Shown in pieces: positions 46,950-57,801 of a stretch of DNA of 64,000 bases (positions within the stretch are counted from its first letter, which is position 1; each line of letters starts with the position of its first letter). Made by a program: the position numbers and the translations under genes. Under the pieces are notes generated by a model, which was not told the DNA's origin, did not search any database, and saw only the letters and a program-made list of their open reading frames with translations. Source of the DNA: Phlegmacium glaucopus (lineage: Eukaryota > Basidiomycota > Agaricomycetes > Agaricales > Cortinariaceae); contig MU130539.1 of assembly GCA_015039465.1 (NCBI GenBank), forward strand, positions 224,825 to 288,824, read 5' to 3'.

Positions 46950-47879
46950 CTAAGATACATGTCTGTGCACTCAATTCCAATCAGTGAAAGAGAGTCTTGC
47001 TACAGTCAACCTAAGCTAGAGTTATTTGGCTTATTCAGAGCTCTTCGACATTATCGCCTCTACCTTATTGGAATCAAGAACCTTCATGTTGAAGTTGATG
47101 CTAAATACATCAAAGGAATGCTCAATGAATCCAATCTCCAGCCATTGGCAATGCCTCCATGAACCGATGGATCCAAGGCATTCTCTTATTTGATTTCAAA
47201 CTTGTTCATGTTAAAGCAGAAAATCATAAGGGCCCTGATGCGCTGTCTCAATGGATCCCTACTGCAGAAGAGCTTCAAGAAGAACAAGAATCAGATGACT
47301 GGCTATGACATTGCCCTTTTCCATTCAACATCCTACCTCTCAGTATTTACGCCCATACTCCCTTTAATTATTTTCTTTCTACATTTTCCAAAGCAAGATC
47401 AGATTCTCCATCAAATATTCCAATTCCTTCACAATCACAAAGTCTCTGAATTCCCTTCAGCCCAAGCTCGCTTATGATTTCTCAGACAAATCACAGATTA
47501 TTACCTCAAGGATGGAGAGATGTTTTGAAGACGAACCGAACAGACTCCACTCTTAGTCATCTTAGACCCTCAGAAATGACTGCAATTACTCACCCAAGCC
47601 CATGAAGAACTTGGACATTGAGGAGCTTATGGAGTATTTGGCGCATTACAACTTTGTTTCTTCTGGCCTCATTTATTTGTGGACGTCAAGCATCATGTCA
47701 GAAGCTGTCACCTCTGCCAACTTTGCAGTACCAAGAAGATTGAAGTTTCCATTACCATATCTTCCCCCTCCATGATATTCACCAAGATCTATGTTAATGT
47801 CATGTACATGCCAAAAGCAGGAAAGTACCAATAAATTGTCCTTGCAAAAGATGACCTATCACGAGCCCCTGAAGGACAC
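46950..47879 (+). pseudogene. Gypsy RNase H tail and integrase zinc-binding fragment
   Basis: Plus strand, opposite to the neighbouring protease. ERESCYSQPKLELFGLFRAL and LHVEVDAKYIKGMLNESN are RNase H blocks, followed in other frames by NHKGPDALSQW. The integrase H2C2 region is recognisable as QAHEELGHRGAYGVFGALQL and RSCHLCQLC. Several frameshifts and stops (for example near 47160, 47580, 47832). The LTR-like unit at 47880 ends it. Confidence 0.7.
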
Positions 47880-50368: not shown

Positions 50369-51150
50369 CCACCCCCCTTTTTAGGGGGGTTTTGGTTTTT
50401 TTATTTTATTTTATTTATTTTACTTCACTATTAACTACAACCCGCAGCGTACGACGACCACCACCACCATTTCACCACCACCACCATCCACTCCGACATG
50501 CCACCACCACCACCCACCCCGATGCACCACCACCATCATCCACCTCGACACACTACCACCACCGACGGCTACCCCCCCCTGTCCGGGGGGGTGTATATCT
50601 TGTTTCGACACAACGACGCCGCCGGCTACCCCCCCTGTTCAGGGGGGCTTTTATTTTGACAGACGACGATGGCTACCCCCCTTATTTAGGGGGTTTTTTT
50701 TATTTCGACGGACGACGACGACTGCTACCCCCCTTTCGAGGGGGGTTTCTTTTATTTCGACAGACGACGACTGCTACCCCCCTATTTAGGGGGGTTTTTT
50801 TTTTTATTTCGAAGGACGACGACGACCGCTACCCCCCTTTCGAGGGGGGTTTCTTTTATTTCGACAGACAACGACCGCTACCCCCCTTTCGAGGGGGGTT
50901 TCTTTTATTTCAACAGACGACGACCGCTACCCCCCTTTCGAGGGGGGTTTCTTTTATTTCAACAGACGACGACCGCTACCCCCCTATTTAGGGGGGTTTT
51001 TTGATAGATGACCGCTACCCCCCTATTTTGGGGGGTTTTTTAAAAATTTCAACAGACGATGACGACCGCTACCCCCCTCCCAGAGGGGGGTTTGTTTTAT
51101 TTCGACAGACGACGACCGCTACCCTTGTTTAGGGGTTTTTTTATTTTATT
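50369..51150. repeat. Tandem array of about 13 C6/G6 hairpins
   Basis: Units of about 39-57 bp, each GCTACCCCCC + 4-6 nt loop + GGGGGG + T-rich tract + TTTCRACAGACGACGACC. Loops vary (TTTCGA, TATTTA, TCCCAGA, TTATTTA) while the stems stay. Period is not a multiple of three, so no protein is encoded. Confidence 0.9.
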
Positions 51151-51566
51151 TCAACAGATGGGATATTTTTTATTTAGTTTATTTAGATTAAAAAATGTAT
51201 AATTATTAATTAACTGTGAATGATGATAGCTACCCTCAGGGTAGAGTTGTTAGTATTGAATTAAAGAAATTAAATAATAAATAAAACAAAACTTTAGCAC
51301 AAATATACTTATTTAATTAAAATTAATTTACAATGTGCTCGAAATGTGCTCGGAATGGCTCAGAATATGGTTGGAATATGGTTGGAATGTGGTCGGAATA
51401 TGACTTATACATAATTTATTATTTTTGCTCAGACTGAGCTCGGATTCCACTCGGAACTGCTCGGATTCCACTCGGAACTGCTCGGAACTGCTCGGAACTG
51501 CTCGGAACTACTTGGAGTCGCTCGGATTGTGTGGGGGAGGGTAAAGTACTGCATGGGTCCCTATCT

Positions 51567-51628: not shown

Positions 51629-51638
51629 TGAGTGAGGC

Positions 51639-51798
51639 TAGGGCGGTGACCGACCTGTCACGAGACACGAGTAGGTAAACTGTCGCCAGACAGGTCGGTA
51701 CATCTGGGTTTAAATCCCCGTAGTGTGCGGATTACCATATTAGGTTCGATAAGTTTTAGCACACCCTAAACTAAAGTCAGTAAACTTTTGTAATGAAA
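51639..51798 (+). repeat. Left terminal inverted repeat with subterminal hairpin
   Basis: 160 bp. Contains an 11-bp inverted repeat ACCGACCTGTC (51649-51659) / GACAGGTCGGT (51689-51699) with a 29-nt spacer, then GGGTTTAAATCCC (51707-51719) and TTAGGTTCGATAAG. Confidence 0.93.
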
Positions 51799-51879
51799 AA
51801 TTGATCTCTGATGTATTTTTAAACGTGCCCTCGATCGCGACGCGTCTGTAATACATATCTGCCTCTCTTTTCTCTTACC

Positions 51880-54083
51880 ATGAACTCCCAAATTGAAGCC
51901 CAACGAAGCATGATGCAAGAAATTAGAGACCTATCTCCCCATTTACTGAAGGCGGCTGTAACCACGTTTATTCCTGATGGTCTGATGGTTCCTGGGGCTT
52001 TCTGGGCTGGGCTTACCGAATCTCAGGTTGCCATCGGATACCGAGCTTGCCTGCTTCTCTGGGTGGTCAGTGACCGTAGGCTTGTTCCAAGGCAATTCCA
52101 ACTTGAGGCTACTATTGCTATCATGGAAGGACGAGATTCTGTCATTGATGTCGGTACTGGCTCTGGGAAAACTATCTGTTCGATCCTCCCATGTCTGCTT
52201 GATCCGAAAGGCCTGTCAATCGTCATAACACCTCTTAAGTGCCTTCAAGCTGTTCAAGTCATAGAGGTTGCTCGCTATGGAATTGAAGCTCTTGCCATCA
52301 ACGAAGACACGCCACACTGCCCTGAACTTTGGAAGGTATGATGGAATGTCTCCCTCACATGAAATATATCTGAACTCTGGGCTCATCAAAAGCACATACA
52401 GGAAGGTCGATACAAGCTACTTCTTGTGCAGCCGGAGCAATTGTCGACAATTGATGGACACATACCTCGAATGGCTCGGCTCATAGGTGGTCGTCGATTT
52501 GTGACTATGATCAAGCGTGTTCACATCGACGAAGCACATACAATTTATAGCGCTGGCATTGAGCGCTATGGTCTGCCTGCATTTCGTCCAGCATGGGGTC
52601 GCCTTGGAGAGTTTCGACTCAAGCTGGCCAAAAATACTGCATTTCAAGCCCTCTCTGGCACGCAACCGGCACATATCAAAGCAACCATCATTGAAAAACT
52701 GTTGATTGATCAAAGAACTGCACTTTTCATCAAACTAACAAGCAATCGTCCTAACACTGTCTACGCTACACATGCCATTGTTGGTGAACTTAAAGACTTC
52801 CGTAATCTGGACTTTCTCGTACCTGATGGGTTCTGTCCTCCCATGCGCCTGGCGAAGACGCTTATTTTTCATGACAACATTGAGGAAGCCGCTGACGCAG
52901 CTCTTCATGTCGACCATCGGCTGCCTCTCTTGTTCCAAAACCGGGGGATTGTTCAACATTACCATGGCGGAATGTCGCCTGAGTATTTGACCCAAGTGTA
53001 TGAAGATTTTTGTGACCCAAATGGGAAGTGCTTGATTCTTCATGCAACTGAGGGAGCTTCAACGGTATTTTTTATGAAGTACTTGCAAGTTGAATTACTG
53101 AATTGATAAATAGGGATTGGATATACGAGATATTGACATTGTGGTGCAATATGGACTTAACCGTGAAATGCCTACCGCATTACAACGAGCAGGACGAGGT
53201 GGCCGGAGCCCAGATCGCGATGCTGTTTTTCTCATCATGTATGAACCCTGGACCCTCCAAGTTGATATCACATCACTACTAGCAACTGCCAACTACTTAA
53301 GAGATCCAGATCAGCCAATAGCTTTGTTGACAAGGTTTTCGACAAAGATCGCTCGAGCAGGTGTTGCAATGCTCCACCTTGTTCATTCATCAGAATGTAT
53401 TTGCAAGATATAGGCAATATACCTCTCAGACAATACTCCGGAAGGTGCGTAGTAATCTTTATTCCTCAACTGTTGTTTTGGTTAACATTGTTGAATCATT
53501 TGTTGCAGCGTGTAAGTTCACGACGCCGTGGTGTTGTAGTCGACACCCAGAAAGCGGCTTCCGGCTTGAGCGCTACTTCAATGGAAAGTTTCTCTATCAA
53601 GATGAAATCGGAAAATTATATTATGGTGATGTCGATGACCCTAAACGTATTCCGATTGTTCCTAAGACCAAGGATACAAAACGAGCAAGAGGTGGTAACA
53701 ATCGCGCTATGTCTGAACATGATCCTCTCAAGTACCTCCTGCAAGTATGGCGTGCCGAAGCCCATCTCCATGACCCTCTGCGCCAGGTTCGACCCGCTAC
53801 TTATATTCTCGATGACGATTCAATCACAACAGTAGCAAAAATACTCCCTGCAAGGCTCAAAAATCTATGTACAGCACCTTCGGTTGTTGCTGAAGTTTTG
53901 GGTGAGACAGAGGAATGGCGATCTGAATGGGCAGATAAAATCCTTGCAGTCATTTGGAAGTACGACATGGATGAGACTCGGTTGGAAAAGGTACGGTTAG
54001 AGAACATAGAGGCACGGGCAGCAAAGAAGGCAAGGTTGGAGAATGCAGAGAAGGAAAATCATTGCATAGCAAAATCGAAATAA
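51880..54083 (+). CDS. RecQ-like ATP-dependent DNA helicase of the transposon (one internal stop)
   Basis: Superfamily 2 helicase expected to unwind 3'-5'. Start MNSQIEAQRSMMQEI at 51880. A Q-motif-like RQFQLEA precedes Walker A GTGSGKT (residues 92-98). Then come motif Ia VITPLKCLQ, the DEAH box in RVHIDEAHTIYSAGI after a 66-nt intron (52336-52401), motif III SGTQP, motif IV/V HATEGAST-GLDIRDIDIVVQYG across another intron near 53067-53114, and motif VI QRAGRGGRSPD. After that a TAG at 53411-53413 interrupts, yet the same frame continues (AIYLSDNTPE) and, across a 64-nt intron (53445-53508), into a Cys/His segment WCCSRHPESGF and a charged C-terminus ending 54083. The helicase core is intact; whether the stop is a true mutation or read through is unknown. 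It lacks a clear complete RQC/HRDC. Confidence 0.88.
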
Positions 54084-54113
54084 CAACTGTACTTTAGCAC
54101 CGACATAAAATTT

Positions 54114-57100
54114 TTATTGTTCTTCTTTATCTACATCTGGTATGGCCCTGCTCAGACTCATTACAGGAAGCTCGTCAACATCATCTTCAAGCTCAATGCC
54201 TTCTTCTGGATCCTCATCAATATCAAACCGTCTCCCATTGACCATTGCTTTAACCTTCTTGTTGAATGTTGCCAATGATGATGATTTTAGTTTTGCTTCA
54301 CCTTCCGCAAGAATATCAGTGACCAGCTTTCCTCGGTGATTACCCTCTCGGTTTTGCGTGAAAACTTGAAGTCCACAGTCGCGAGCCTTGTTAGCGGTGC
54401 GCCAAACAAGATGGGAGGTGTCTGGAGTGGTGTGTGTAGTGTTCTGATAAGCTGTACTCATCTCCTGAGCAACTATCTTCTTGGCCTTCTGTAGATAGTC
54501 GATGGCAGCTGATATATTCCCGAGGCGGTCCCAGGTAGACTGTAAACCCTTAGCCGCAAGAAGAATCTCCATGGGATGTTGAGATAAATGCCAGAAACAT
54601 GGACATCAACTCATAGACTCACCTTTAGGTATCCAATCAAGTGTTCAATGTTCAAATCTATTGGCATGGCATGTCCATCATGTCCCGAGGGATTCACAAG
54701 CATGTTATCTCGCATGATGTTCCTGATAAACAGAGTTGGAGAATATAGCTAAGAGAAAATAGGTAAATACGCACGCAAACTCGGGGGTCCAAATATGCTT
54801 TAGATTGAGGATGAAGTGAAGGATCTCTGTGCAATAATTTTTACCTCCAGCACCACGAAACATCATGGCAAGTTGAGGCAAGAAGTCCTCAATTCGTCCA
54901 ATATCTCCATCAGAGATAGCTCGAATCAATTCAGCAACATACAATAGATCTCGAGTGAGCAGCCGAAGATTGTGAAATGCTATGTCGTCCTTTGGGTTAT
55001 CCACTTGGGGTGGCGGTTGAGAACTAGTTTGTGTGGTTCCAGCATGTGTGGTTTGAGGCCCAAAGGTCGAAGCTCTTGTTTTGGTACCCCTAGCTTTGGA
55101 GCTCTTGGCGGCCTTTTCCAAACCGGGCATTTCTATAGGGTGGTTCATAGGTGTTGCATATTTTTCGATAATAATGTGAGCGATGGCAAGCAGTTTGGCT
55201 GGAGTTGGCTTTGATTTCGCAAAATCATCGAGGTCATCATGGCCACATTCAGTTCGCCAAGCATTGAGGAGCAGACCATGCAGGATTTGAGTGAGCGCGG
55301 CAAGAAGGGTGTGATAGTCAGGGTGTTCGCCCCCAAGACGTGCCTTTTCAATGAGAGCAAAGAAATATGTCAGGCTACCAATCTGGTTGATGGTGCCTCG
55401 ATGTATATGGAGCAGGCCCCAGCAGAGATTGAGACACAGATGGAAGAGACCAAATCCGAGCTGAAAGACCTCACGCCGAGTCCATGAATTAATGTCTCGA
55501 GCACGAAGTGTTTGAGCCGAGCGTATACGCGAGTTTGTGAGCTGGTCATTGTAGCTTGGGACTGCATATTTTGAAAGGGTTTCTGAGTTGCGCTTGAGCT
55601 GTTCTTTGTATACATCATCATGGAAAAGCAAATTTCCTCGAACACTAGCCTCTTCAATTGTTGTCGCACGAAGAGGGTACTGTTCTGTAACATAACCAGG
55701 AGGCATTGGTCGACATGGCTTGTGCTGAATTTGTTTGGCATAGGCTTCAAAAGGTAGGAAATAAGTTGTCAGAACTCGAACGACAACAACAGAGAGTTGG
55801 TGCCTGAATGACATAAGTTGCTCTTTGGTTGGTCGAATATCATGATTGAAGTCCAAACCCATAGACTGTTTAAACCGCTTCATGATGGGTGCAAGTTCCA
55901 TGTGGTGTGGGTTTCCATTCCGAACTGGGTAGAGGACTGCAAATGTTCCCGAAGTTACCTTTGCTGGTCCTGCTGATCCACGCTGCTCGACAAAGATGGA
56001 GGTACTGATGTTCACATTGTCGTAGCAAAAGACGTGCATGCCTGATCCAACCTTGATGGCCAGTTGAATACATTCATCGGCAAGAGAGGTAATGATATGG
56101 AGGACAGAGTTATATGACACACAGATTCCACATCGATGGAGGGCTTCGATAGTTTGTTTTGCACACCCTGTACTCCACAGAAAGAGACCAAACTGTGCAG
56201 GGAACCCAGACGACCGATTAGATCGCTGATACATGAGTTGGTTGACAATAACAGTGCAGGTCTAAAGATCAAAAATTTAAGCACGGTGCAATAAAACGAC
56301 ACATCATAACTCACCATTTCTGGTCGTTTCTTTTTGTTGCCAGCTTTTGCTTTCTCGGTTTGAGCTGCTGTCTCCAGAATCCGGGTGAGGGTAGGAGAAA
56401 GCTTCCTATCTTGTGATGCATCCCAGTTCTTGATAAATTCAGGTGTAATGGCTGCCATCCCAGGTAGACGCGACGAGACATTCAAGGCATCCATCTCATC
56501 ATAAACAGTTGAACACACAAGATCTAGCGCATGTGGAAGCATCCATTTGTTCAGCTTTTGTGCGCCCTTCTTGTCGTCCATAATAGTGTCAAGTAGTCGT
56601 CCAAGATTTGACGAGCTGTTCTTGTAAAGCTCAGTGCGGTAGCCTTGATACTCTGGAGAAGATTGATTGAGAACCTCAAGTAGGACATCTATAGGGGAAG
56701 CACAGATCATGCGCAGATGCTCGAGAATTGGTTGGAATCTATAGAAGTCTGGCGAATGGTTGTTTGAGCTGGGAGATGGCGTTACAGGGTCGCAGTATGC
56801 CATGACGGTCTCTCTATCCTGAAAGAAATCAAGCTCAGAGGCTTCCAGTTCAGAATGAGCAAGTATTTCCTCCTCAAGGTTGAATGGAGATGTAAGAGTG
56901 GGATTCTGAACCTGATGAGTCAAAGTGCGGCGGCTCCGTGGCAATGAGGGCGAAATTGATGTCTGAGTTGGATTCATGGATGCAGGAGTGATAGGCATAC
57001 GAAAGGTGAATGTAGTATTTAGCAAAGGACTTGTATCAGAGACCTGTGGAAAAGATGTATTTAAAGCTATATGATCCTTCAAGCCATTGGGAGCGCTCTC

Positions 57101-57241
57101 TTGTACTACTGTTGGCAATGCTTGCCAATTAAGTGAGGCTTCTCCAGGTACTGCCATACGGCGTTGAGGAGGTCGACGCTTGGGTTTTGCAGGAATCTTG
57201 GAGGCATTCGCAAGTATTTCAGCAGAGGTAGGGACATTCAT
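54114..57241 (-). CDS. DUF6589 protein, candidate transposase of the element
   Basis: Four exons (57241-56315, 56261-54775, 54722-54623, 54566-54114) with GT-AG introns of 53, 52 and 56 nt give 988 residues without a stop. The first 310 residues are Pro/Ser-rich with a basic start (PAKPKRRPPQRR). The conserved part begins near residue 325 and matches basidiomycete DUF6589 proteins: HVFCYDNVNIS (Asp390), TTIEEASVRGNLLFHDDVY, SYNDQLTNSRIRSAQ (Asp548), FGLFHLCLNLCWGLLHIHRG, GEHPDYHTLLAALTQILHGL, LRLLTRDLLYVAELIRAISD and NPSGHDGHAMPIDLNIEHLI (Asp827, Glu831). I infer a possible RNase H-like DDE arrangement from the spacing; the family has no established function that I know of. Confidence 0.85.
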
Positions 57242-57296
57242 GATCGTTCTGTATATATTGAGGACCGCAATCGTGATCGAGTGTAAGGATTTCTTA

Positions 57297-57456
57297 TTTC
57301 ATTACAAAAGTTTACTGACTTTAGTTTAGGGTGTGCTAAAACTTATCGAACCTAATGCAGTAATCCGCGCGTTACAGGGATTTAAACCCAGATGGACAGG
57401 CCTGTCTGACGACAGTTTACCTACTTGTGTCTCGTGACAGGCCTGTGTTAGGCCTA
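57297..57456 (-). repeat. Right terminal inverted repeat with subterminal hairpin
   Basis: 160 bp, inverse of 51639-51798. Its hairpin arms are ACAGGCCTGTC (57396-57406) and GACAGGCCTGT (57436-57446), 29-nt spacer, and GGGATTTAAACCC lies next to it. Confidence 0.93.
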
Positions 57457-57465
57457 GAGTGAGGC

Positions 57466-57801
57466 ATATAAAGTATGTGTCTGTGTTGTTGACTTTGTGG
57501 TACCATTTTTCCAAATTTTCAATACCCTTCCACAGTGGTTCTTCAACCTCTGCAAATTTCAGATGATTTGCCATATTACCCCATGATTCTTGTAAATACT
57601 CTAATACTGGAATGGTGCGAAATACACTGGGCTCATTTGAGCTCAAGAACATCTGCTTGGCACTGGCTGGCTCCCAATTTATTTCATGAAGATAAGCAAG
57701 AGGTGATAAAAATGAAGTAATATAGACCTTGAGCACCTCATGCATGAGGGTAATTTTCTCCCAGTCACTTTTTTGAATGTGGAAATCTGAATATGTTTCC
57801 T
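57466..57801 (-). pseudogene. hAT transposase fragment (middle part)
   Basis: Minus strand: QKSDWEKITLMHEVLKVYI, then VFRTIPVLEYLQESWGNMAN, LKFAEVEEPLWKGIENLEKW and NNTDTYFICL. These are recognisable blocks just before the LDP motif of hAT transposases. The frame continues into 51552-51638 and 49633-49688 when the two nested elements are skipped. No N-terminal BED or catalytic first Asp region present. Confidence 0.78.

What the first reader, a model, noticed from the sequence alone, without database searches (positions are those of the whole stretch)
51639..57456. A complete, well-bounded DNA transposon pairing a DUF6589 protein with a RecQ-like helicase
Sequence shows: a 9-bp perfect duplication GAGTGAGGC at both edges, TIRs of exactly 160 bp on each side, and only two genes between them (helicase + strand, DUF6589 - strand, stops 30 bp apart). 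The host frame is a hAT transposase that resumes on the other side (NTDTYFICLT / Q-intron-DRDPCY), giving an independent proof of the insertion boundaries. Known: DUF6589 is a widespread uncharacterised basidiomycete family and RecQ-like helicases are multi-copy in these genomes. Inference: the two are a transposition module and many DUF6589/RecQ gene pairs elsewhere are copies of such elements.
Basis: partly seen in the sequence, partly recalled or inferred. Interest (0 to 1): 0.95.

Follow-up and report, generated by a model that had tools for sequence, protein, structure and literature searches.

The report
Mushroom transposon with its own helicase
This is a complete, probably still intact jumping gene of a mushroom that pairs a likely cut-and-paste enzyme, filed in databases only as "unknown function" (DUF6589), with a RecQ-like DNA-unwinding enzyme; it closely resembles a published transposon group (AcademH) and suggests that many unexplained mushroom genes belong to such elements.

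The parts
51630..51638 (.). left copy of 9-bp target-site duplication GAGTGAGGC
51639..51798 (+). left terminal inverted repeat, 160 bp, begins TAGGGCGG
   Evidence: 141/160 identical to the right one
51880..54083 (+). RecQ-like SF2 helicase gene, 661 aa; exons 51880-52335, 52393-53064, 53114-53396, 53509-54083 (start of exon 2 follows a public protein of the same genome, P0121; the other junctions are my own)
54114..57241 (-). DUF6589 gene, 988 aa, proposed DDE transposase; introns (my model) 56314-56262, 54774-54723, 54622-54567; candidate triad D (FCYDNVN), D (YNDQLT), E (NYCTEIL)
57297..57456 (-). right terminal inverted repeat, 160 bp, begins (on the - strand) TAGGCCTA
   Evidence: right end also fixed by a 99.4% partial copy at C126 that stops exactly there
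57457..57465 (.). right copy of 9-bp target-site duplication GAGTGAGGC
57466..57745 (-). part of the interrupted host repeat/ORF; an uninterrupted paralogue is at C116:76935-77257

Best explanation
The feature is a complete, probably autonomous class II (cut-and-paste) DNA transposon of the AcademH type. The DUF6589 protein is its DDE transposase. It binds the long terminal repeats, cuts the element out with an RNase-H-like active site (D, D, E), and inserts it into a 9-bp staggered cut, which gap repair turns into the 9-bp duplication. The RecQ-like helicase is a co-mobilised partner that most likely unwinds or takes apart the transposon-end or strand-transfer complex so that ends or gaps can be processed. 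Shown: element boundaries, duplications, past mobility of helicase+DUF6589 units, recurrent pairing, conserved triad; predicted: the fold. Inferred: catalysis by DUF6589, the role of the helicase, and homology to the Academ transposase.
Confidence: 0.85

Rival explanations
1. The elements belong to a separate, undescribed superfamily that evolved a helicase and 9-bp duplications independently of Academ, with a hAT-like DDE fold.
For: Nearest solved folds are hAT (Hermes) and P element; no AcademH sequence could be compared; no paper in the held library mentions DUF6589.
Against: The two traits given for AcademH, helicase and 9-10 bp TSDs, and its reported presence in Basidiomycota as low-copy elements all fit.
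Confidence: 0.1
2. The element is a divergent Mutator-like (MULE) transposon: long TIRs and 9-bp duplications are common there (recalled).
For: 160-215-bp TIRs and 9-bp TSDs; IS256/MuDR elements make 4-10-bp TSDs (passage in PMC10045372).
Against: No MULE or other transposase family was reported by Pfam for the window ORFs (E up to 0.1) or for five homologues (E up to 10, though HMMER filters drop most matches above about 0.1).
Confidence: 0.03
3. DUF6589 and the helicase are cargo or host genes carried by non-autonomous elements mobilised by some other transposase.
For: Catalytic activity has not been shown; a 512-bp gene-less copy with its own TSD exists, which may have been moved in trans or deleted in place.
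Against: No further gene-sized frame is present in the window element; DUF6589 has a transposase-like predicted fold and a near-invariant DDE triad; the pair recurs in elements with differing TIRs.
Confidence: 0.02

Closest known systems
AcademH (Academ superfamily; Kojima 2020, Mobile DNA 11:15; paper not held, known here only from citing papers)
   Same: encodes a helicase; 9 or 10 bp TSDs (PMC10045372, passage); reported as low-copy in Basidiomycota, Ascomycota and Mucoromycota (PMC10799480, passage)
   Different: not established: its transposase sequence and termini could not be compared; no held paper mentions DUF6589 at all
AcademX
   Same: same superfamily label
   Different: encodes a nuclease and makes 3-4 bp TSDs (PMC10045372, passage); here a helicase and 9 bp
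hAT (Hermes)
   Same: closest solved fold; a long all-helical stretch lies before the proposed catalytic E, as in Hermes (recalled)
   Different: usually 8-bp TSDs (PMC12730594, passage) against 9 here; no hAT family reported by Pfam; carries a helicase
Helitron
   Same: transposon that carries a helicase
   Different: TIRs and TSDs are present here and no Helitron family was reported by Pfam; PMC12730594 describes Helitrons as HUH/Y1 single-stranded transposers (passage)

Membership tests
AcademH | TSDs of 9 or 10 bp | tested here: met
   9 bp exact at the window element, a deleted copy at C187 and 8 further pair loci; C24 with one mismatch; none convincing at 3 of 13 pairs
AcademH | encodes a helicase | tested here: met
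   DEAD hit and weak Helicase_C hits; solved relatives include RecQ1 and RecQ
AcademH | encodes a DDE transposase | tested here: met
   by predicted fold and conserved triad only; activity not tested
AcademH | transposase homologous to other Academ transposases | not testable with these tools
   the defining paper is not held and no reference sequence was at hand
AcademH | no nuclease of the AcademX kind | tested here: met
   no nuclease family reported by Pfam in the element's ORFs at E up to 0.1; that the AcademX nuclease is XPG is recalled
hAT | 8-bp TSD (5-7 in subgroups) | tested here: not met
   9 bp at the exact cases; hAT TSD lengths from a passage of PMC12730594
hAT | hAT transposase sequence | tested here: inconclusive
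   no hAT Pfam family reported for DUF6589 proteins; fold nearest to Hermes
MULE | MULE transposase domain | tested here: inconclusive
   not among Pfam families reported for the window ORFs or five homologues; a very weak match could be lost to filters
Helitron | no TIR/TSD, HUH nuclease with helicase (absence of TIR/TSD recalled) | tested here: not met
   TIR and TSD present; no Helitron family reported
RecQ family (TIGR00614) | score above the curated cut-off | tested here: not met
   99.8 bits against 219.8 for a 467-aa helicase core; hence 'RecQ-like'

The most novel reading that the evidence does not exclude
DUF6589 elements form their own DDE superfamily, not homologous to Academ, in which a RecQ-type helicase is an obligate partner of a hAT/P-like transposase; a large share of the 'RecQ-like helicase' and 'DUF6589' genes of mushrooms would then be parts of an undescribed transposon superfamily.
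Probability: 0.12. Interest if true: 0.75.

Novelty: new member of a known kind. Interest (0 to 1): 0.5.

Why it matters
DUF6589 is a widespread gene family of mushroom-forming fungi named only as 'unknown function', and this genome alone holds 30 DUF6589 loci, most of them beside RecQ-like helicases. Showing that the two travel together as one transposon, with a DDE-like fold for DUF6589, gives the family a testable function. It would let genome annotators remove these genes from host gene counts (including apparent DNA-repair expansions). It also supplies recently mobile elements in which the role of a RecQ-like helicase in cut-and-paste transposition can be studied.

Tried and rejected
Pfam scan of the host frame to confirm 'hAT': nothing. 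Profile of DUF6589 against PDB sequences: nothing up to E 10. Foldseek alone: Hermes among the top rows but no E<=0.001. Family search with the generic DEAD model in the host genome: of the pair loci only C7 appeared, probably because just 35 of 151 candidates were scored; TIGR00614 and two helicase proteins were used instead. C181: 215-bp, 94% TIRs but no duplication within 400 bp. C171 (1.32 Mb) and C186: no convincing ends. The 9-bp scan also gave hits that I did not accept (C171 and C181 one each, C71 and C183 a second one each), because the ends do not begin TAG/CAG; this rule was set after seeing the first elements. C71: its TSD is exact, but the left flank holds a direct copy of the right end, so I do not count it as clean. 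An inverted-repeat scan of the loci that I held without extra flanks gave no further long repeats for the unexamined pairs. Literature: DUF6589 in 0 papers; PF20231 only in an unrelated optics paper; 'recq + basidiomycet + transposon + terminal inverted repeat' in 3 papers, listings only in that search; searches for Academ. Papers seen as passages only: PMC10799480, PMC10045372, PMC8290104, PMC12210899, PMC9970103, PMC12730594, PMC10294476; PMC9674265 held none of the terms. My first merging script assumed wrong orientations for fetched loci and was redone. My first helicase model had an in-frame stop from a wrong intron-3 donor, corrected; exon 2 was corrected after the public protein P0121. 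My first cross-species table held 71 of the 97 named helicase rows, three of its four rows below P0190 picked because I had seen them pair; the remaining 26 named rows were added and gave no further pair.

Full report
1. The feature. The window lies in contig C183 (224825-288824) of a 60.5-Mb, 259-contig assembly. Two public proteins named Phlegmacium glaucopus fit it: P0121, 99% identical over the 57% of the query that it covers, on a contig of 422,129 bp, the length of C183; and P0131 on a contig of 1,024,080 bp, the length of C105. At 51639-57456 a 5,818-bp segment is bounded by 160-bp inverted repeats (141/160 identical) and a perfect 9-bp direct repeat GAGTGAGGC. Inside are two convergent genes with 30 bp between their stops: a helicase (661 aa, four exons) and a DUF6589 protein (988 aa, four exons), both without internal stops in my splice models. 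The outer 20 bp of the two repeats match at only 13 of 20 positions, and the deleted copy at C187 keeps the same asymmetric ends.

2. It moved. Searching the assembly with the left repeat gave six places: the two window repeats, both ends of one copy at C187, one at C126, and one 58-bp fragment at C84. C187:274872-275383 is a 512-bp internally deleted copy with its own 9-bp duplication GCGACAATG. C126:466784-468340 is 99.4% identical to the right 1,557 bp of the window element and ends exactly at its right terminus. Joining the window flanks finds C116:76935-77257, 94% identical and continuous over the junction; this paralogue lacks 4 bp at the target, so it supports the breakpoints without being an exact empty allele.

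3. Other helicase-DUF6589 pairs are elements too. The Pfam DUF6589 model gave 72 matches in 30 loci of this genome. With helicase matches, 19 of 30 loci have one within 5 kb, against about 0.65% expected per locus by length alone for the 34 helicase loci used. A second helicase query adds C238, C240 and C88, giving 22 of 30 (gaps), or 24 of 30 within 10 kb counting C54 and C184. Two of the 22 rest on short or weak matches (C171 at 1.285 Mb; C88). Of the 22, 20 are convergent and 2 divergent. I examined the ends of 13 of the 22 with flanks. Exact 9-bp duplications directly outside matching termini occur at C183 (window), C105 (590744-598138, GATGTTGTC), C30 (271146-277139, CTCACGAAT), C147 (405031-411607, GGATTTATT), C7 (425696-431724, GAACGAGGT), C9 (167209-174086, ACCCTTTCT), C41 (179086-185963, CTGGTAGCG), C241 (558759-564933, CCCAGCTCC) and C71 (7110-13444, GACGCTGGG). 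C24 (52820-59310) has 8 of 9 matching. C181, C171 (1.32 Mb) and C186 gave none that convinced: the scan showed one hit each at C171 and C181, with 10 of 20 matching end bases and no TAG/CAG start, which I took as chance. C71 is tangled, because its left flank holds a copy of its right end. Left-flank shuffles gave 0.025-0.165 hits per locus. C30/C147 and C9/C41 are copies of one family each, so the nine exact cases represent seven families. Nine pair loci were not examined with flanks.

4. Recent activity. The C30 and C147 elements are about 99.4% identical apart from one length difference of roughly 580 bp, with different flanks and duplications. The C9 and C41 elements are 100% identical over 6,878 bp with different flanks and duplications. 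The C147 element sits in a high-copy repeat: its joined flanks with a single 9-bp copy align over all 193 bp with each of the 40 places scored (of 196 candidates), 9 of them 100% identical.

5. The pair is widespread. DUF6589 relatives of the window protein number 201 at E<=0.001 among the candidates scored (120 listed); helicase relatives number 108. 29 of the 107 DUF6589 proteins share species and contig length with a helicase relative (30 pairs, one contig twice), in 22 of the 31 species that had both in the tables. For these 29, pairwise distances of the two proteins correlate at r 0.87 (0 of 5,000 permutations as high); within Mycena alone r is 0.67 with n 11 (0 of 5,000). Relatedness of the species contributes to the first figure. 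Four pairs have consecutive locus tags (CVT24_009899/009900, NMY22_g2073/g2074, EST38_g3858/g3859, ONZ45_g629/g630). Sharing a contig is weaker than adjacency for the longest contigs, and no element ends were examined outside this genome. The named hits listed appear to be Agaricomycetes (my reading of the names).

7. What the helicase is. Its closest solved relatives by sequence are an 'ATP-dependent DNA helicase' (E 5e-19), RecQ1 (8e-18) and RecQ (1e-16) (a 467-aa core). That core scores 99.8 bits with TIGR00614 against a cut-off of 219.8. GTGSGKT, DEAH and QRAGRGGRS motifs are readable in the sequence (motif meaning recalled). I propose that it helps to disassemble or process the transposon-end complex; nothing here tests this.

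8. Known kind. A passage of PMC10045372 says that AcademH generates 9 or 10 bp TSDs and AcademX 3 or 4, and relates this to the helicase and the nuclease that they encode, citing Kojima 2020. [quoted passage not shown] The Kojima paper itself is not held, so I saw nothing of it. The window element meets every AcademH trait that I could test, but transposase homology could not be tested. No held paper mentions DUF6589 and the one PF20231 hit is unrelated; the link between DUF6589 and AcademH may still be in print elsewhere or in Repbase. I therefore rate it a new member of a known kind, with the DUF6589 identification as the useful part.

Noticed in passing
window 50560-51160: Array of imperfect units with short palindromes of C and G runs (CTACCCCCCT...AGGGGGG) some 50-60 bp apart, read by eye; looks like a minisatellite of hairpins near the insertion site.
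   Followed up: no
C41:177989-185978 of the host genome (loci L018, L029, L070, L071): The 6,878-bp element lies within a larger segment bounded by TAGGCTCGTGACC/TAGACTCGCTACC ends with its own 9-bp repeat GGCGTAATC, ends like those of the C71 element: probably one such transposon nested in another.
   Followed up: partly
C71 and C181 of the host genome: Two pairs are divergent instead of convergent; both also differ at their ends (C181 no TSD found, C71 tangled), which may mark a separate lineage.
   Followed up: partly
Pfam PF20231 (DUF6589) model: In P0001 the match starts at residue 306, after the proposed first catalytic aspartate (250), so the model covers only part of the transposase domain.
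   Followed up: yes
C48:134599-135959 and C159:55340-55947 of the host genome: Helicase relatives on contigs without a DUF6589 match; C48 has 77% inverted repeats about 1.4 kb apart whose letters resemble those of the C105 element, perhaps a deleted copy.
   Followed up: no
window 47000-47770: By eye the sequence reads like a degraded Ty3-type retrotransposon fragment; not tested.
   Followed up: no
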